NCBI RefSeq assembly: GCF_012910785.2
Contig: NZ_WTVH02000008.1
Coordinates: 434,001-498,000 of the forward strand
Length of the DNA: 64,000 nucleotides
Direction: 5' to 3'
DNA from: Aromatoleum buckelii
GTDB lineage: Bacteria; Pseudomonadota; Gammaproteobacteria; Burkholderiales; Rhodocyclaceae
In this document: piece by piece, positions 11,616 through 19,690 of the stretch
Numbering within the stretch: position 1 is the first letter of the stretch
How the letters are laid out: each line of letters begins with the position of its first letter
The notes under the pieces: generated by a model
What the model was told of the DNA's origin: nothing
What the model saw: the letters and a program-made list of their open reading frames with translations, nothing else
Database searches by the model: none
Program-made: the position numbers and the translations under genes

Positions 11616-11753
11616 GGCGTCAATATCCTGAGTGAGGAAAAACGTCGGACGTCGCTTGTTGGATCAGGTTCGCTTCACGCAGCCGGGCGAGCGATGGTGG
11701 CCCACTCGATGGCAGAGCTTGATCCGACTTGGTCTACCGGTGACCCAGACAAC

Positions 11754-11785
11754 AAAAAAGCCAACCTCTGCAGGGTGGCTTTTTG
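11754..11785. terminator. Bidirectional intrinsic terminator
   Basis: AAAAAAGCCAACC, a short loop, then GGGTGGCTTTTTG forms a GC stem flanked by A and T tracts, so it can end transcription from either side. It lies just left of the left attachment repeat and may shield the island from the antiporter region. The rest of the gap 11616-12055 holds only this and the attachment repeat. Confidence 0.7.
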
Positions 11786-11817
11786 CTGGCAGATCGACGA
11801 CCTGCCTGTATTCGATT

Positions 11818-11843
11818 TGGAGCGGGCGATGGGAATCGAACCC
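11818..11843. repeat. Left attachment repeat (partial tRNA-Gly 3' end)
   Basis: A 26-bp sequence starting TGGAGCGGGCGATGGGAATC is identical to 19617-19642, which is the 3' end (CCA tail, acceptor strand and T-arm) of the tRNA-Gly gene. The copies are in direct orientation and 7.8 kb apart. This copy has no tRNA body attached, so it is the far junction left by site-specific integration. Confidence 0.9.
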
Positions 11844-12055: not shown

Positions 12056-13201
12056 ATGCTGATCGTACTCACTAGCCCCCATGCCGTCGCCCCTCTGGGC
12101 GCACCCAAACTGGACGTGGTAGCTGCCCTGATCGCCGCAACTACTAAAGGTCACCCCGTCGCAATCGTGTCAAACCACGCCGAGCCGAAGTGGTTTCAGG
12201 GTGCCTTTGGCGGGTCCAACGTTCAGTTTCTGCAAGCGCCGGGACGACAGAATGGCCAAGTCGTCACGGTAAATGTTGAGCAATTTGGCGTCCGTCCGCA
12301 CGACGCAGTGGTACTCCTCGGCAAAGCTGAGGACATCATGATGGCCAAGAACGGCGGCGCGCTCATGCTCGCCGCTGGTTGGGTGAACGACAAGCAGGTG
12401 AAGGGCCTCGGGGTGCAGGTGCAGGACGGCAAAGAACTTCTCGAGGTTCTTGACCTGACGGACAAGTGGTCAGGAGCGTGGTGGTTCTCCGGAAATGGGG
12501 GGGCCGGCGGCTATTCGGTAAGGGCGTTGGCAGATCTGTCCTCGATGTACTGGCAGCCGGACGCTCAGCAGATCTTCGCGGGGAAGTTGAAAACGACTGT
12601 AAAGAACGGGGGCGCACGCCTTACAGCGCTCCTCACGGTCACGGCACGATCGCTTCTCACCGAGGGTCTCGGCGTCAGTCGCGAGTCGCTCTGGGGGATC
12701 TATCCTTCGTCAAGCAGCAAGAACAACGACTCTGATGTGCTGAGTGACTTCGTGCATCGTCTCCGCACTGTCACTTCTCGCGTTCGATTCGCCGAACGAG
12801 GACAGCCGCTCTTCATCCGGCACACCCCTTCCGCTAAGAGGTCATCCGGAGCGGGGGGCAACCGAATGGACCCGTCCGGCCAAGTGGAGACGCTCCACAT
12901 CAATCCGCATTACAAGAAGGGCCGTCTGGTAGGACGGGATGTGATACTGCTGGACGACTGTACTACCTACGGCGTTTCGTTTGGAGTCGCTGCCGCGCTC
13001 CTCCGCAAGGCAGGGGCGGCCTCCGTGACTGGAGTGGCTCTCGGAAAGTTTGGCAATCGGCTCGCAAGCTACCGCATTGACATCAACTCGGACCCCTTCT
13101 CGCACGTGAAAAAGGCCAGCTACATGGCTCACCCCCCTCTGCCGTTGCTCGGCGTAAACAACGAAGCCGCGAAGACGATGCTGCAGTCGTTGATCCCGTA
13201 A
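12056..13201 (+). CDS. Phosphoribosyltransferase-fold protein with degenerate HAD-like N-terminus
   Basis: A 381-residue protein without an obvious named family. The C-terminal part (about 285-345) has a type I phosphoribosyltransferase signature: GRDVILLDDCTTYGVSFG followed by AALLRKAGAASVTGVALGK, resembling ComF-like PRTases, so PRPP or a ribosyl phosphate is a likely ligand. The N-terminal 150 residues have a Rossmann-like rhythm with HAD-like VAIVSNHAEP and LLGKAEDIMMAKNGG, but no DxD nucleophile, so a HAD domain, if real, would be inactive. The stop overlaps the ATG of the SLOG gene by one base. First gene inside the left island end. Function is unknown; nucleotide signalling or defence is inferred. 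Confidence 0.6.
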   Translation: MLIVLTSPHAVAPLGAPKLDVVAALIAATTKGHPVAIVSNHAEPKWFQGAFGGSNVQFLQAPGRQNGQVVTVNVEQFGVRPHDAVVLLGKAEDIMMAKNGGALMLAAGWVNDKQVKGLGVQVQDGKELLEVLDLTDKWSGAWWFSGNGGAGGYSVRALADLSSMYWQPDAQQIFAGKLKTTVKNGGARLTALLTVTARSLLTEGLGVSRESLWGIYPSSSSKNNDSDVLSDFVHRLRTVTSRVRFAERGQPLFIRHTPSAKRSSGAGGNRMDPSGQVETLHINPHYKKGRLVGRDVILLDDCTTYGVSFGVAAALLRKAGAASVTGVALGKFGNRLASYRIDINSDPFSHVKKASYMAHPPLPLLGVNNEAAKTMLQSLIP

Positions 13202-13716
13202 TGAGAGTGATCATCGCCGGTTCACGAAACGCCAGTCAGCGCGACGTTCTTGCCGCGCTCGAAAGGTGTTCGTGGACCGGGTTCGCAACGTGCATCGTCT
13301 GTGGGGGGGCGAAGGGTGCGGACGAGCACGGTGCGGAGTGGGGCAAACAGCAGGGGCTAGAGGTCAAGAACTACCCAGCCGACTGGAAAAAGTATGGCAA
13401 GCGCGCAGGTCCTGTACGAAACCGGGAGATGGCAGAGAACGCAGAAGGGCTGATCGCGGTGTGGGATGGGTCGAGCCGAGGTACCGCCAACATGATCGAA
13501 ACGGCGGAGCAAGCAGGACTGCGGATTTTCATACTCCGGACCGACATCAACGGCACCAAAAGCGTATCCGCCACCGGGCGGCTCGAAGGGCAGTGGGAAT
13601 TCGCTGAAGAAAGAGCGGCAATGATGGAGTTTTCGGCGGGTATCGACCGAACCGTTGCGGAGCGGTTAGCAGGAAGGACCGCTAGAAGCCTTGATGACGA
13701 CGCAGCCATGCAGTAA
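13201..13716 (+). CDS. YpsA-related SLOG-fold protein (DUF2493 type)
   Basis: A 171-residue protein with the SLOG/YAcAr pattern: MRVIIAGSRNASQRDVLAAL at the N-terminus, CGGAKGADEHGAEWGKQQG near residue 40, then YPADWKKYGKRAGPVRNREM near residue 60 and GTANMIETAEQAGL near residue 100. SLOG proteins bind nucleotides or nucleotide-derived ligands, and several families work as sensors or effectors in phage defence. Its start overlaps the PRTase stop (TAATG), indicating coupled translation and a shared task. The last 50 residues are not conserved in pattern. Confidence 0.78.
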   Translation: MRVIIAGSRNASQRDVLAALERCSWTGFATCIVCGGAKGADEHGAEWGKQQGLEVKNYPADWKKYGKRAGPVRNREMAENAEGLIAVWDGSSRGTANMIETAEQAGLRIFILRTDINGTKSVSATGRLEGQWEFAEERAAMMEFSAGIDRTVAERLAGRTARSLDDDAAMQ

Positions 13717-13744: not shown

Positions 13745-14443
13745 CTACCAGAGCCCATAGTTGTCGGGAGCCGGCGTGGATGGTAACCGCTTCAACACCC
13801 GTTGGAGTTGCACCAGAGACCACTCTCCACTTCTCGCGGTCCGTATACCCAGTCTGTTTAGCTGATCAACCATCATCCGCTGTGACATCCCGGCGGCCCT
13901 GAATCCTCGCAGGACACCGGCCAACTTTGCGGCAAATGCGTCAGCGGCGCTCCTACGTTCCTCGATATTCCGCTTGAGATTGGCTGGGCCAGTGGTGCCG
14001 AGCCTGACACCACGAGCCTTCGCTGCCGCCAGCGCCGCCTTCGTGCGTGCACTGATCTGATCGCGCTCCCACTCGCTCATGACTGCGTGCATCTGAATCA
14101 TCACCTTGTTCGCCTGAGGCATGTCAGCGGCCACGAAGTCCACACCGGTTTCGAGCAGGCCCGAAACGAAATGGACGTTCCGGGCCAAGCGGTCGAGCTT
14201 CGCGATGATGAGGGTTGCTCCATGCTTCCGGCAGGTTTCGAGGGCAGCCCGCAACTGCGGGCGCCTGGCAAGCGCATTGGCTCCCTTGCCGGTTTCCACC
14301 TCCTGAAATTCGCCGACTAACTCCCACGCTCCGCCGTTGAGGTATGCAGCGACGGCAGCTCTCTGCGCCTCAAGGCCAAGACCGCTCTGCCCCTGCCTCT
14401 GAGTGCTTACGCGGAAATATGCGACGTATTTACCGTTTGCCAT
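13745..14443 (-). CDS. Serine recombinase (resolvase/invertase family)
   Basis: A 232-residue site-specific recombinase. The catalytic Ser lies in YFRVSTQRQGQSGLGLEAQ, with the conserved Arg set in RPQLRAAL and KLDRLARNVHFVSGLL, and MSEWERDQISARTKAALAAA as the long E helix. The C-terminal part (about 165-225) is a small helix-turn-helix, DQLNRLGIRTARSGEWS. Start 14443 has an AAGGAAG ribosome site. It may resolve or invert DNA within the island. It is divergent from the small gene at 14552. Confidence 0.88.
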   Translation of the reverse strand: MANGKYVAYFRVSTQRQGQSGLGLEAQRAAVAAYLNGGAWELVGEFQEVETGKGANALARRPQLRAALETCRKHGATLIIAKLDRLARNVHFVSGLLETGVDFVAADMPQANKVMIQMHAVMSEWERDQISARTKAALAAAKARGVRLGTTGPANLKRNIEERRSAADAFAAKLAGVLRGFRAAGMSQRMMVDQLNRLGIRTARSGEWSLVQLQRVLKRLPSTPAPDNYGLW

Positions 14444-14551
14444 GCTTCCTTCTCCGACGACTACATGCAAGAGCGCACGTTCAATGTGTAGTCAGCATAA
14501 CACGATACCTGTCTCTTGCGCATAGTCACTCGTTATGGTAAAGTCAGCCGC

Positions 14552-15707: not shown

Positions 15708-16277
15708 ATGCCGAAAAATACGATGGCAAGAAAATCACTTTCGCTCGAACAGATTGCTGATGCCTTGGCGCTCCGTGAGGCCGGCTACACCGTGCTTGCC
15801 ATCAGTCAGCGACTCGGAATCCCAACGCGCACACTAGAGCGCCACTTCGCCAAGCACGGCGCACAAAAAGGCGTGCTGAAGAAAGAAGCGATTGAGGCCG
15901 CCCGGGCGGAAATACTCCAGCACATCATGGCAGACGACACGATCCGGGCCGAAGCCGCCAAGATGATCGCGGACGATCTTGCGCACGCCCGCCACGTTCG
16001 GACGATTATCCTCAATGCTGCAGAGCAGTTGAAGGCCGCCTCACTTCAGGAGGCTGCGTTGGTCATGCGTGCCGCAGCGGCGTACAGCACAGCGATCAAG
16101 AACACGTCCGACATGGTTCGCCACTCACTGAGGCCGGACAGAGGGGGTGTCGAGTCGCGAGCGCTCCCGGAACTCGTGATAGAAGAGATCACGGCGGCGG
16201 AGTTGGAGCGTATCCGCAAGGCGCCAACCTCCAGCGGGGAACCCTCTGCCGTCAGTGAAGACGACGTCTTGGCGTAA
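15708..16277 (+). CDS. Helix-turn-helix protein, phage small-terminase-like
   Basis: A 189-residue protein. Residues about 11-48 form a helix-turn-helix of the Hin/terminase type: LSLEQIADALALREAGYTVL, then ISQRLGIPTRTLERHFAKHG. The rest is mostly helical (AARAEILQHIMADDTIRAEA; AEQLKAASLQEAALVMRAAA). The layout recalls phage small terminase subunits or HTH transcription factors, but no large terminase follows, so packaging is unlikely. The ATG at 15723 (MARKSLS) is an alternative start; neither has a strong ribosome site. Confidence 0.6.
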   Translation: MPKNTMARKSLSLEQIADALALREAGYTVLAISQRLGIPTRTLERHFAKHGAQKGVLKKEAIEAARAEILQHIMADDTIRAEAAKMIADDLAHARHVRTIILNAAEQLKAASLQEAALVMRAAAAYSTAIKNTSDMVRHSLRPDRGGVESRALPELVIEEITAAELERIRKAPTSSGEPSAVSEDDVLA

Positions 16278-16399: not shown

Positions 16400-16462
16400 T
16401 TGCATGCACCCGCCGTACGGTCTTATGCTATACGCAACGAGACCACTAACCGACCGCATCGC

Positions 16463-17215
16463 ATGTTGAACGCCGGCGCCACGTACACAAGAGCACAAGT
16501 CTTACATCTGCTCGGCTTGGCCGACCCTGGCGGAGGGGCCTGGTATACGGGCCTCACTCGTCACAATGACGATCACTACATCTTCTGCGGTGTTGGCGTA
16601 GCCGGGCGCACTGGCCACGATTATGCGAACCACTTTGACGGCCCGGATCTTGTCTGGCATGGCCGGACGGGATCGGCGAAGGATCAGCCGTCTATCAAGG
16701 CGTTGCTGGCCGGCGGCACCGTTCATGTCTTCTTTCGAGACGACAACCGCGCCCCGTTCACCTATGCAGGAAAGGCACGGCCGCTGTCCGTAAAGGATGT
16801 AGTTCCTGTCGAGATCCGATGGTCGTTCCGCCTTGATGATGGTCCGCATCCGGAATTTCTTCCCGACGAGGTCGAGGATGCGACAACCGTGATCGAGGGA
16901 GCCAAGCGCACTGTGACGGTCAACATCTATGAACGCGATCCGTCCGCGCGAGCGCGATGCCTCACACGTTGGGGCACTCGATGCTCGGTATGCTCGTTCG
17001 ACTTTGCAAAGGAGTACGGCGATATCGGGGACGGGTACATCCACGTCCATCATCTACGCCCGCTCGCCGAGATCGGAAACGAGTACGTGCTCGACCCGGA
17101 AAACGATCTTCGACCCGTCTGCCCGAACTGTCACGCAATGCTCCATCGAACCAGGCCAGCGCTTTCGCTTGAAGAACTTGCGGCAAGAAGACACAGTGTC
17201 AAAGGCTCGATCTAA
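16463..17215 (+). CDS. HNH endonuclease with N-terminal DUF3427-like domain
   Basis: A 250-residue protein. The C-terminal HNH nuclease (about 165-235) has zinc-type Cys pairs in RCSVCSF and RPVCPNCHAMLHR and the core YIHVHHLRPLAEIG with following Asn/Asp (PENDLRP), all intact. The N-terminal 125 residues (YTRAQVLHLLGL; YIFCGVGVAGRTGHDYANHF; VHVFFRDDNRAPFTYAGKA) resemble DUF3427, a domain appended to helicases of defence loci. A restriction-type role against foreign or modified DNA is inferred. Start 16463 (MLNAGATYTRAQ) excludes an unconserved 21-residue extension. Confidence 0.75.
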   Translation: MLNAGATYTRAQVLHLLGLADPGGGAWYTGLTRHNDDHYIFCGVGVAGRTGHDYANHFDGPDLVWHGRTGSAKDQPSIKALLAGGTVHVFFRDDNRAPFTYAGKARPLSVKDVVPVEIRWSFRLDDGPHPEFLPDEVEDATTVIEGAKRTVTVNIYERDPSARARCLTRWGTRCSVCSFDFAKEYGDIGDGYIHVHHLRPLAEIGNEYVLDPENDLRPVCPNCHAMLHRTRPALSLEELAARRHSVKGSI

Positions 17216-17574: not shown

Positions 17575-19533
17575 TCAAGAATCGGCTCCGGCGCTGACCT
17601 GCTCCCCGCTCTTGCGCCGCGCCACCCTCGCTTTCAGCTGTTTGGAACATTCCAGCGCCCTCAACGCAGCCTGCACGTCGAACCCTCGAATACCGGCTAA
17701 ACAAGGGAAGCTCAGCCGCTCTATGATCGGCTTCAGCTCGTTCGCTTTCCGGTCCTTGGCATATCTCGTGCCCCCCTGCGTCGCGCCGCGCTCATGCCCC
17801 AGGAGCTGCGCCATGACCCGCTCCGGCACGTCCAATCGCTCGATGGCGGTGGCGAAGTTGTGGCGGAACGAATGAAAGGTTTTCCGCCCGTCACGCGGCA
17901 TCCTGAGTTGCCTCCCGAGTAGCCGCTCGTTGAACCACGAGCCGGCCGGTTTGCCGTAGCCCTTCACCCGGTCCCGCGTAAGCTCAGGAAACAATCTTGT
18001 GTGCCCCGCCTCATGCAAAGCTGAGACGTACTGGGGCAGGCCGGCGTCGATTACGGCGCGATGCAGCGGCACCACGCGAATGGCGTTGACCGTCTTCAGT
18101 GACTTATTCGGTCCTGAGCTATCTGCGTCGAGCTTGTCCGACTGATCCAGATTGAAGTCGATGTACCAAACGGAGGATTCATCGTCGGACTGCCGGATGT
18201 CGTCCAAGTGCAGCTGTGCCAGTTCATTGAGCCGCCCGCCGGTCACCAAAGCCAGCAGCGGCAGCCAATAGTAGGATGGCCGCCAGCCGGTCGAGCCCTT
18301 TTCCGTGAACGCACCGCTGCCCGTTGCGAACCAAGGGCGCGTGAAGATCTCGGCCAGCTCGTCCGGCGCGAACGCATCCCTGTCGTCCTGGCTGCGGGCG
18401 CGCTTCGTAGCACCCCACCCGCGTTTGAAGCCTGCCGCTGGATTTACCCTCAACAAGCCGGCGGGAGAGACGCCGAAGTTGAGCACTTCGGCGAGCCTAC
18501 CGACGTGTCCCTGGATAGTCTTCATGTTCTTGAGAGGCAGCGACTCGCGGTCCGCGATCTCCATCAGCTCGGGAAGCGGTTGAATCTTATAACGACGACG
18601 CGTGCGGTAGATGTCGGTGGGCAAGCGCGCGAGTCGTGCCGCGTACTCTTGCACCATCTCCACGTCGATCCTGGCTACAAGAGGGTCGTCCATTAGCTCT
18701 GCGAACAAGCCCGCCTCATGTGCCATCCGTCGCGCCTGATCCTCGCCCCACGCCCGATGCTTGCGATACATCGTGAACAGCTCGGAAAATCGCTTGGCGC
18801 TTTGCCGCACCGTTGGCGGGTCTTCAGCGGCCGGTGGCGCAAGAGCGGGGCCAGGAGCAACTGCAACGGGCGAAACGACCGCGATAGGTACCGCAGCGGC
18901 CAGGCGATGCCGGACCGCCTCTACGGCCCTTTTTGGCGCCATCCATGCGGCTAGCGGCACGGGCGTCGGGGAATCTAGCCAGAACGCTTCTCGTCCTTTC
19001 AGCCGGAGCACCTCTTCCACGCTGATGCCAGTGCTCAGCAGGGCAGCAAGGGTCGCGGCAGAGCTGTGCGCGCGGACGGGGGCGGAAAGTACCCGGCTCG
19101 TTCCTTTTGTTTCGACATCGTTGATGATGTAAGTGCGATCCGAGTCACGATCGATGGCGTCGAGGTCCAGTACATGAAATCCGCGCCAACCCTGTGCCCA
19201 GGTGAACACTTCGACCCCCCGGTTGAGAAGTTCGGTAAGCAAGCTACCGACCGAGAGACCGATGATGGCGGCCGCCTCGGGGATCGAAATGAGACCGCCC
19301 CCCGCGAGCAAGGGGTTTGCGGTGACAAGCTTTTCGATGTCCAGCGTCATGAACCGCTCTCGCCATCCGAGTTGGATTTTCAGGGCCGAGAGTTTAGCTG
19401 CGTTCCAGTCGCGAAGGCCCGTCGAAACGTGGATCTCACCGCGACCGACTAACCCGCGCAGGCGAGCGGGCACGACGAGACGGACGACGTAGATGCCGCT
19501 GGAGCGGCGATACAGACAGGGAACCCCCGGCAT
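17575..19533 (-). CDS. Tyrosine recombinase (island integrase), long form
   Basis: A 652-residue phage-type integrase, about 200 longer than common integrases. The catalytic domain (about 400-615) has the Arg in LVTGGRLNELAQLHLDDI, the HxxR box in FHSFRHNFATAIERL, and the GH...Y region in LLGHERGATQGGTRYAKD with the nucleophile Tyr. The N-terminus (YLYRRSSGIYVVRLVVPARL-like) is an arm-binding motif, followed by an HTH-like insertion (ISIPEAAAIIGLSVGSLLTE) and a Pro/Ala linker. It lies 83 bp from the tRNA-Gly 3' end and reads away from it; it probably catalyses integration at the 26-bp repeat. Confidence 0.93.
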   Translation of the reverse strand: MPGVPCLYRRSSGIYVVRLVVPARLRGLVGRGEIHVSTGLRDWNAAKLSALKIQLGWRERFMTLDIEKLVTANPLLAGGGLISIPEAAAIIGLSVGSLLTELLNRGVEVFTWAQGWRGFHVLDLDAIDRDSDRTYIINDVETKGTSRVLSAPVRAHSSAATLAALLSTGISVEEVLRLKGREAFWLDSPTPVPLAAWMAPKRAVEAVRHRLAAAVPIAVVSPVAVAPGPALAPPAAEDPPTVRQSAKRFSELFTMYRKHRAWGEDQARRMAHEAGLFAELMDDPLVARIDVEMVQEYAARLARLPTDIYRTRRRYKIQPLPELMEIADRESLPLKNMKTIQGHVGRLAEVLNFGVSPAGLLRVNPAAGFKRGWGATKRARSQDDRDAFAPDELAEIFTRPWFATGSGAFTEKGSTGWRPSYYWLPLLALVTGGRLNELAQLHLDDIRQSDDESSVWYIDFNLDQSDKLDADSSGPNKSLKTVNAIRVVPLHRAVIDAGLPQYVSALHEAGHTRLFPELTRDRVKGYGKPAGSWFNERLLGRQLRMPRDGRKTFHSFRHNFATAIERLDVPERVMAQLLGHERGATQGGTRYAKDRKANELKPIIERLSFPCLAGIRGFDVQAALRALECSKQLKARVARRKSGEQVSAGADS

Positions 19534-19616: not shown

Positions 19617-19642
19617 TGGAGCGGGCGATGGGAATCGAACCC
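19617..19642. repeat. Right attachment repeat (tRNA-Gly 3' end)
   Basis: The same 26 bp as 11818-11843. It covers the CCA tail, 3' acceptor strand and most of the T-arm of the tRNA, so integration restores a complete tRNA at this end. The next base differs (A here, G at the left copy), fixing the repeat edge. Confidence 0.9.
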
Positions 19643-19690
19643 ACGGCTCTAGCTTGGGAAGCTAGGGTATTACCATTATACGACGCCCGC
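19617..19690 (-). tRNA. tRNA-Gly (anticodon CCC)
   Basis: The complementary strand reads GCGGGCG...CGCCCGC with an encoded CCA end. A 7-bp acceptor stem, D-arm GTAT/ATAC, anticodon stem CTAGC/GCTAG with loop TTCCCAA (anticodon CCC), and T-arm GTGGG/CCCAT with loop TTCGATT all pair. The total is 74 nt. It closely resembles E. coli glyU. It is the attachment target of the island. Confidence 0.95.

What the first reader, a model, noticed from the sequence alone, without database searches (positions are those of the whole stretch)
16463..17215. HNH nuclease fused to a DUF3427-like reader domain
DUF3427 is usually appended to helicase/nuclease defence proteins. Here it is the N-terminal half of a compact HNH enzyme, arranged like modification-dependent (type IV) restriction enzymes with a reader plus a cutter. 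It is near the PRTase/SLOG pair, so the island may be a small defence island.
Basis: partly seen in the sequence, partly recalled or inferred. Interest (0 to 1): 0.58.

Follow-up and report, generated by a model that had tools for sequence, protein, structure and literature searches.

The report
Modified-DNA reader fused to HNH nuclease
A small mobile island carries a gene for a two-part enzyme that probably recognises chemically modified DNA bases, such as those of some bacterial viruses, and cuts that DNA; it is an unusual variant of a known class of defence enzymes.

Summary
The ORF at 16463-17215 encodes 250 residues. Residues 2-125 match the last part of DUF3427; residues 158-250 form an HNH nuclease. 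P0001 alone is below Pfam's DUF3427 cut-off (21.2 of 27.7 bits), but the family profile finds the SRA domain of the 5mC-dependent enzyme SauUSI (residues 806-917, E 9.9e-9), and the AlphaFold model agrees (Z 12.2). The architecture is SRA-HNH, a known kind (TagI).

What differs: the base-reading aspartate is asparagine in 33 of 33 rows, as in PvuRts1I. The HNH cassette also carries 21 other clusters of front ends; SRA monophyly on its tree is rejected (AU p 0.0012). Cytosine-5 methyltransferases lie near 10 of 35 SRA-HNH genes, against 2 of 66 with another front end; the window's genome has none.

Best reading: a modification-dependent endonuclease, probably preferring 5hmC-type bases. It sits in a 7.8-kb tRNA-Gly element with a ShosTA-like pair. 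Nothing was tested biochemically.

The parts
16463..17215 (+). SRA-HNH gene (250 aa; alternative TTG start at 16400 gives 271 aa)
16466..16837 (+). N-terminal SauUSI-type SRA (DUF3427 C-terminal part) reader domain, residues 2-125; predicted pocket L31, F41, C42, Y54, N56, W65
16838..16933 (+). low-confidence inter-domain linker, residues 126-157 (pLDDT below 50 at 127-157)
16934..17212 (+). McrA-type HNH nuclease, residues 158-250: zinc cysteines 174/177/220/223; H197, D215, H224, H228 (roles by comparison with TagI, inferred)
16628..16630 (+). codon of N56, at the place of the cytosine-reading Asp (SauUSI D858)
11818..11843 (.). left 26-bp direct repeat of the element (copy of the tRNA-Gly 3' end)
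19617..19642 (.). right 26-bp direct repeat, inside tRNA-Gly
19617..19690 (-). tRNA-Gly(CCC), target gene of the element
17575..19533 (-). tyrosine integrase (DUF6538 + Phage_integrase) of the element
12056..13201 (+). ShosT-like protein (phosphoribosyltransferase-like) on the same element
13201..13716 (+). ShosA-like SLOG (YAcAr) protein on the same element

Best explanation
It is a stand-alone modification-dependent restriction endonuclease of SRA-HNH architecture. Shown by sequence and model: a SauUSI-type SRA domain, a low-confidence linker and an HNH domain with its conserved residues intact. Inferred: the SRA domain flips a modified cytosine out of DNA and stacks it between Y54 and W65; the HNH domains dimerise, as in TagI and VcaM4I, and cut nearby without ATP. 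Because N56 replaces the usual aspartate, as in PvuRts1I, and because relatives coexist with cytosine-5 methyltransferases, I think the mark read is more likely a 5hmC-type base (or 5mC in a narrow context) than 5mC in general. On this reading the enzyme covers the gap left by ordinary restriction, since phages that hide from restriction by replacing cytosine become its targets. Step probabilities: SRA fold 0.97; modification-dependent cutter 0.7; 5hmC-type preference 0.4.
For: The profile finds SauUSI 806-917 (E 9.9e-9), within its published SRA reader 806-953, and EcoKMcrA for the HNH half (PMC7913695). Model: SauUSI Z 12.2, rmsd 2.8 over 115 residues; TagI and ScoMcrA align across both domains, though with rmsd 17.3 and 11.8, i.e. 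other domain orientations. W65, F41, N56 and GRTGH are conserved in 33 of 33; zinc cysteines and HNH histidines in 35 of 35. PvuRts1I N217 occupies the place of UHRF1 D469 and SUVH5 D418 (PMC4157451). There is no C5 methyltransferase match in the window's genome, 99.4% complete (0 of 1), so a 5mC- or 5hmC-dependent cutter is safe there. 10 of 27 relatives' genomes also show none, which argues against obligate protection by a C5 methyltransferase. Neighbours of relatives include DISARM, HEC-07 and type II R-M genes.
Against: No biochemistry. The DUF3427 score of P0001 itself is below the cut-off. P0001 has Leu where 31 of 33 have Tyr at the residue thought to contact the 5-methyl group in SauUSI. 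17 of 27 relatives' genomes encode C5 methyltransferases and 10 of 35 loci have one within about 6 kb, which is awkward for a plain 5mC-dependent enzyme. The 10 of 27 without one include draft and metagenome assemblies of untold completeness, so absence there is weak. Asn alone does not fix 5hmC choice: PvuRts1I N217D keeps 5hmC activity. Some long DUF3427 proteins also have Asn there (L136, L137). N6-adenine and N4-cytosine methyltransferases of the window's genome were not searched.
Confidence: 0.6

Rival explanations
1. General 5mC-dependent type IV enzyme, like SauUSI or TagI: the SRA reads any 5mC and the HNH cuts.
For: Closest reader is SauUSI's 5mC SRA; aromatic pocket positions kept; no C5 methyltransferase match in the window's genome.
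Against: 17 of 27 relatives' genomes carry C5 methyltransferases and 10 of 35 SRA-HNH loci have one nearby; the carboxylate held responsible for cytosine preference in TagI is Asn in 33 of 33.
Confidence: 0.22
2. Type II-like partner of a C5 methyltransferase: the SRA pocket reads an unmodified base or a sequence, and 5mC protects the host.
For: Same-strand gene runs with short gaps that include a C5 methyltransferase in L028, L042 and L046; 10 of 35 against 2 of 66.
Against: No C5 methyltransferase match in the window's genome or in 10 of 27 relatives' genomes, some of them drafts. In L051 the methyltransferase has a type II REase of its own beside it.
Confidence: 0.1
3. Homing endonuclease or selfish HNH gene that happens to carry a DNA-binding domain.
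For: HNH domains occur in homing enzymes; the gene is on a mobile element.
Against: The N domain has the SRA base-reader fold. Phage hits match only in the HNH half (0 of 7 cover 80% of the query). Some relatives sit in defence neighbourhoods. No dedicated search for introns or inteins was run.
Confidence: 0.03
4. Inactive remnant: an intact-looking gene no longer expressed or functional.
For: By eye, no clear ribosome-binding site before ATG 16463 in the sequence printed; P0001 alone has Leu at position 31.
Against: Zinc and HNH residues intact; no stop or frameshift.
Confidence: 0.05

Closest known systems
SauUSI (PLD-helicase-SRA, Staphylococcus aureus; PDB 7clg)
   Same: Reader domain: detectable sequence homology (E 9.9e-9), fold Z 12.2; Y-x-D/N and Trp pocket positions line up.
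   Different: HNH instead of PLD nuclease; no ATPase or coupler; reader at the N-terminus; Asn for Asp858; Leu for Tyr831 in P0001.
TagI / ScoA3IV SRA-HNH endonucleases (PDB 6ghs)
   Same: Same order SRA then HNH, similar size, both halves of TagI align to the model (191 residues, rmsd 17.3).
   Different: TagI is not found by the family sequence profile at E up to 1; TagI reads with Asp58; HNH Asn replaced by D215 here; CxxC instead of CxxD zinc pair (TagI facts; the correspondence is my inference).
ScoMcrA (SBD-SRA-HNH, PDB 5zmm)
   Same: Its SRA-HNH half aligns to the model (residues 1-239, Z 9.2, rmsd 11.8).
   Different: No sulfur-binding domain here; only weak sequence similarity, in the HNH (E 0.15; 8.7e-4).
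EcoKMcrA (NEco-HNH, PDB 6ghc)
   Same: HNH domain homologous (E 1.4e-6).
   Different: Its N-terminal NEco reader recognises bases without flipping (title of PMC7145662, search listing) and was not aligned by the profile.
PvuRts1I / AbaSI (PD-(D/E)XK-SRA)
   Same: SRA fold (Z 8.6 and 9.2) and, in PvuRts1I, Asn in the base-reading place (PMC4157451).
   Different: Different nuclease and domain order; not among the sequence matches.
DUF3427 fusion endonucleases of Lutz et al. 2019 (recalled; paper not held)
   Same: As I recall the abstract, DUF3427 fusions were screened, restricted T4gt and often lay in islands with DNA methyltransferases. PMC7159879 cites the paper for DUF3427 as a modified-DNA reader.
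   Different: As I recall, those tested had PD-(D/E)XK nucleases, not HNH. Not checked.

Membership tests
DUF3427 (PF11907) | score of the protein over Pfam's curated cut-off | tested here: not met
   21.2 of 27.7 bits, positions 128-244 of 280 only; 32 of 35 A1 members match at E 0.01 or better, best 1.1e-15
SRA domain (SauUSI type) | SRA fold | tested here: met
   SauUSI Z 12.2, SUVH5 9.4, AbaSI 9.2, PvuRts1I 8.6; Foldseek E 4.5e-5; profile E 9.9e-9. Fold is that of a predicted model
SRA domain (SauUSI type) | two aromatics sandwiching the flipped base | tested here: met
   position 54 Tyr in 31 of 33 (His in 2), position 65 Trp in 33 of 33; by alignment, not by a bound structure
SRA domain (SauUSI type) | carboxylate reading cytosine | tested here: not met
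   Asn in 33 of 33; PvuRts1I also has Asn
SRA-HNH endonucleases (TagI) | N-terminal SRA plus C-terminal HNH in one chain | tested here: met
SRA-HNH endonucleases (TagI) | common descent with TagI by sequence | tested here: inconclusive
   TagI not among 4 PDB matches of the family profile at E up to 1; structural alignment covers both halves with rmsd 17.3
SRA-HNH endonucleases (TagI) | modification-dependent cleavage | not testable with these tools
   needs enzyme assays
HNH (beta-beta-alpha-metal) nuclease | zinc CxxC...CxxC and catalytic histidine | tested here: met
   C174, C177, C220, C223, H197, H224 and H228 in 35 of 35; D215 in 34 of 35; PF01844 over cut-off
Type IV restriction (solitary, no cognate methyltransferase) | no neighbouring or genomic C5 methyltransferase | tested here: met
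   0 PF00145 matches in the window's genome; N6A and N4C methyltransferases not searched. Not true of all relatives
Homing endonuclease | homologues known only as free or intron/intein-borne phage or homing HNH genes | tested here: not met
   full-length relatives are in cellular genomes, some beside defence genes; phage records match only in the HNH half. Introns and inteins were not searched for
ShosTA (neighbouring pair) | PRTase ShosT plus SLOG/DprA-like ShosA | tested here: inconclusive
   ShosT E 2.7e-45; ShosA only E 3.5e-4; YAcAr E 1.7e-13

The most novel reading that the evidence does not exclude
The SRA-HNH family works hand in hand with neighbouring cytosine-5 methyltransferases: either its asparagine pocket lets it spare the host's 5mC while cutting 5hmC-type phage DNA, closing the escape route from C5 restriction and DISARM, or its SRA domain reads the neighbour's 5mC as a self mark that vetoes the nuclease. 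Readers are swapped onto one HNH cassette as the mark to be watched changes.
Probability: 0.2. Interest if true: 0.72.

Novelty: new variant of a known kind. Interest (0 to 1): 0.47.

Why it matters
It turns a DUF label into a concrete, testable reader-cutter enzyme with a named pocket. The family offers a natural experiment in which one nuclease cassette carries many front ends, so the mark each one sees can be compared with the cutter held nearly constant. If the asparagine pocket spares 5mC but reads 5hmC-type bases, it would explain how such enzymes live beside cytosine methyltransferases, and it could supply compact enzymes for mapping modified bases.

Tried and rejected
HNH_2 (PF13391) in the own genome: 0 of 1. 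Type II-partner and homing readings are given as rivals. I first read the N-terminal extensions of L036, L038 and L041 as ScoMcrA-like from memory; PDB, Pfam and NCBIfam searches gave no support (for L038 and L041; L036 was scanned only inside A3), so the idea is dropped. L044's extension reaches the EVE cut-off exactly (23 of 23 bits).

A clean empty site was sought in 5 same-genus genomes. Only G013 has 102 bp of left flank (11742-11843, 86% identical) running straight into the intact tRNA. In the other four the DNA next to the tRNA differs (in G007 and G008 parts of the left flank lie 2-4 kb away), so the spot is a variable one and precise excision is not shown. The island has no long match in 72,556 plasmids: 11 records, none covering 80%.

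C5 methyltransferases: the motif regex found fewer (6 loci, 4) than the profile (10 of 35). Because that profile was built from group A methyltransferases, it was rechecked with a group B seed; blastp at E 1e-4 recovered 9 of the 10 (phmmer 8) and no further group B locus. The association is partly confounded by phylum: outside Bacillota, named phyla only, 3 of 18 against 0 of 47 (p 0.019); Pseudomonadota alone 3 of 13 against 0 of 16 (p 0.078). L001, L002 and L031 are near-copies and were all counted. L021, L023 and L024 gave no ORF hit and are in neither group. L005 and L010 were kept in A1 but dropped from pocket counts, as their N-parts differ. L054 and L057 (broken or short frames) were counted for neighbours but not for the pocket. 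For one search the genomes of 28 of the 35 group A loci were asked for; 27 were held. In plasmids 202 records match, all below 60% identity, 10 covering 80% of the query; only H1 and H3 were opened. PADLOC on the 118 neighbours listed 25 of 195 families, all methyltransferase models, so other systems there are seen only through.

Papers: passages or sections seen of PMC3874153, PMC7159879, PMC7913695 (also outline and abstract), PMC12707154, PMC6212794, PMC7897488, PMC7641849, PMC7461809, PMC12923530, PMC11037411, PMC4157451, PMC4027163 and PMC4259335. PMC8565348 and PMC7145662: search listing only. Lutz 2019: not held, recalled.

Full report
THE GENE. Window 16463-17215 (+) is an open frame of 250 codons from ATG; a longer TTG start at 16400 is possible. 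Homology to most full-length relatives begins at residues 1-8, so I favour the ATG. Pfam finds HNH at residues 174-229 (28.5 bits, cut-off 21.4) and DUF3427 at residues 3-109 (21.2 bits, cut-off 27.7, E 1.9e-4; profile positions 128-244 of 280). PADLOC's best hit is its type IV model mREase_IV, through the HNH half (E 1e-7). Solved structures: EcoKMcrA 6ghc E 1.4e-6 and ScoMcrA 5zmm E 8.7e-4, both in the HNH.

THE FAMILY. Viral contigs gave 24. In these 104 loci, 35 frames matched the query from residue 30 or before to 230 or beyond. L005 and L010 among them proved to have other N-parts. A1 (P0001 plus 34 loci, near-copy L002 omitted) shows 35 to 60% identity to P0001. 35 of 35 match HNH and 32 of 35 match DUF3427, best E 1.1e-15. 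So the domain is sparse.

The A1 profile against all PDB chains returns SauUSI 7clg residues 806-917 at E 9.9e-9, and EcoKMcrA for the HNH half. The SauUSI paper places its target-recognition domain at 806-953, with an SRA fold, and proposes a pocket of Y831, F841, I842 and W868, with D858 reading the flipped base and M829 filling the gap (passages of PMC7913695). An AlphaFold model (mean pLDDT 83.5, pTM 0.52; residues 127-157 below 50) matches SauUSI best: Foldseek E 4.5e-5, VIA-align Z 12.2, rmsd 2.8 over 115 residues. SUVH5 (9.4), AbaSI (9.2), ScoMcrA (9.2 and 8.8) and PvuRts1I (8.6) follow. TagI (SRA-HNH, Z 8.5) aligns over 191 residues but with rmsd 17.3, that is, with another domain orientation.

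THE POCKET. In the profile alignment, SauUSI F841, D858 and W868 correspond to F41, N56 and W65; Y831 corresponds to position 31. Census over 33 SRA-bearing rows: F41 33, W65 33, N56 33, GRTGH (48-52) 33, Tyr at 54 in 31 (His 2), Tyr at 31 in 31 (one Leu, P0001; one His, L033 in the alignment). PvuRts1I has W215 and N217, with N217 at the place of UHRF1 D469 and SUVH5 D418, and SUVH5 stacks with Y416 (passages of PMC4157451); the spacing aromatic-x-D/N is thus shared with SUVH5, PvuRts1I and SauUSI (Y856-x-D858). TagI's authors say the carboxylate is responsible for cytosine over thymine (section of PMC6212794). In PvuRts1I, N217D keeps 5hmC cutting and lowers 5mC cutting, so asparagine is compatible with 5hmC but does not by itself prove it. 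The swap is fixed in the HNH family sampled here but not unique to it.

THE CUTTER. C174, C177, H196, H197, C220, C223, H224 and H228 are invariant in 35 of 35; D215 in 34 of 35. By comparison with TagI's numbering, H197 should activate water, D215 stands at the Asn place, and H224 binds metal. These roles are inferred.

ONE CUTTER, MANY FRONT ENDS. 66 other loci share the HNH part, mostly residues of about 132-239, at 36-65% identity (48 of 66 at 50% or more) but not the SRA (no match to the SRA profile at E 0.01). Their 63 N-parts of 60 residues or more fall into 21 clusters by single linkage (blastp E 1e-3); linkage through long N-parts joined some unlike ones. Pfam names few: of 69 N-parts scanned (these 63 plus 6 extensions of SRA members) only DUF7225 (2), EVE (2) and DUF6009 (1). 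The commonest N-part, modelled alone (10 sequences, pLDDT 86), has winged-helix repressors as its top hits, best Foldseek E 0.025, probability 0.98, none at E 0.001, and shows no profile similarity to the SRA. That is a weak but consistent match, and wH-HNH enzymes reading 6mA are known (passages of PMC11037411). On a tree of 101 HNH cassettes the SRA label needs 11 changes, at least 6 forced by well-supported branches (shuffled mean 29). The bootstrap had not settled and only 110 columns were used. Holding the SRA rows together costs 108.8 log units, AU p 0.0012. So front ends were exchanged repeatedly; the direction is not known.

NEIGHBOURS OF RELATIVES. Up to two ORFs per side in 32 loci gave 118 proteins. 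Among the 25 most frequent of 92 Pfam families are 7 C5 methyltransferases, 7 integrases, 3 resolvases, 2 EcoO109I enzymes, 2 ThsB TIR and 2 HEF_HK. Ten neighbours that I picked for size or position were checked with PADLOC: DISARM DrmA and DrmB (L034) and DrmB (L048), HEC-07 (L029), a MkoA/DpdJ-like protein (L028), type II REases (L051 and, weakly, L046); 3 of 10 had no hit. Some loci show plain housekeeping neighbours, e.g. glycyl-tRNA synthetase in L025. A wider count of C5 methyltransferases within the fetched flanks (about 6 kb, less at contig ends) gives 10 of 35 SRA-HNH loci (383 kb) against 2 of 66 loci with the same HNH and another front end (658 kb), Fisher p 3.5e-4. Genome contigs alone: 10 of 33 against 0 of 47, p 5.6e-5; the phylum-restricted tests are weaker (see Tried and rejected). 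At genome level 17 of 27 relatives' genomes have PF00145, against 10 of 14 control genomes, so the family does not avoid such hosts; the window's genome has none. L042 and L046 show the run methyltransferase, about 1000 aa, about 560 aa, SRA-HNH on one strand with short gaps; L028 shows 841 aa, SRA-HNH, 1376 aa, methyltransferase. A Priestia plasmid relative also has a cytosine methyltransferase, with one gene between.

READING THESE TOGETHER. Copies in genomes without any C5 methyltransferase cannot depend on one for protection. Copies beside active methyltransferases of that kind cannot cut every 5mC. A reader of 5hmC-type bases, or of 5mC in a narrow context, satisfies both, and asparagine in the pocket is in line with PvuRts1I. 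Pairing a system against unmodified DNA with an enzyme against modified DNA has a named precedent in BREX plus type IV restriction by BrxU (title and start of abstract in search listing, PMC8565348). This is my inference, not a result.

THE ELEMENT. An exact 26-bp repeat lies at 11818-11843 and 19617-19642, the second inside tRNA-Gly(CCC) 19617-19690; it occurs twice in the window. Between them lie the ShosT/ShosA-like pair, a resolvase, an HTH ORF, the SRA-HNH gene and a tyrosine integrase. GC is 60.4% against 67.9% and 66.3% in the window's flanks. None of the 16 other genomes of the genus has a match to the protein (G001-G016); of 101 genomes searched there, the 4 others with a match have it in the HNH part only. 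The tRNA neighbourhood differs between relatives. So the gene probably arrived recently on a small integrative element.

NOVELTY. SRA-HNH, DUF3427 as a modified-DNA reader (predicted in PMC7159879, passage; proposed for SauUSI in PMC3874153) and combinatorial readers on nucleases (PMC11037411) are all in print. Searches for DUF3427 with HNH and DUF3427 alone found the same two papers, neither describing this fusion in the passages seen; most subscription papers are not held, and I recall a 2019 screen of DUF3427 fusions. Hence: new variant of a known kind.

Noticed in passing
window 12056-13716 (+): ShosT-like PRTase and SLOG/ShosA-like gene, overlapping by one base, a second defence module on the same element.
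   Followed up: partly
window 13745-14470 (-): Small serine recombinase (resolvase) inside a tyrosine-integrase element; may be a remnant of an earlier insertion.
   Followed up: no
window 15708-16277 (+): HTH protein matching a PHROG DNA-binding family (phrog_867, E 2.2e-12), next to the SRA-HNH gene.
   Followed up: no
G000:C5:190135-190557 (+) (L133): A second DUF3427 match in the same genome, in a 1104-codon frame, 65.3 bits.
   Followed up: no
L042 220-6735 and L046 101-6726: Four-gene same-strand run: C5 methyltransferase, about 1000 aa, about 560 aa, SRA-HNH. The two middle genes of L042 had no PADLOC hit; the long one of L046 a weak type II REase hit. Possibly an undescribed system.
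   Followed up: partly
L034 190-6810; L048 2-6741: DISARM genes upstream of an SRA-HNH gene: drmA and drmB directly before it in L034; in L048 drmB and a first ORF homologous to L034's drmA, with one ORF and a gap between.
   Followed up: partly
L044 5221-6738: Two readers in one chain: EVE-like (23.0 bits, at the cut-off) then SRA then HNH.
   Followed up: partly
A1 position 42: Pocket-wall residue is Cys in 17, Ala in 15 and Val in 1 of 33; Ala goes with Bacillota and with a nearby C5 methyltransferase, but phylum confounds it.
   Followed up: no
L054 1612-2369: SRA-HNH of a Microcoleus MAG split over two frames, perhaps a pseudogene or a sequencing error.
   Followed up: no
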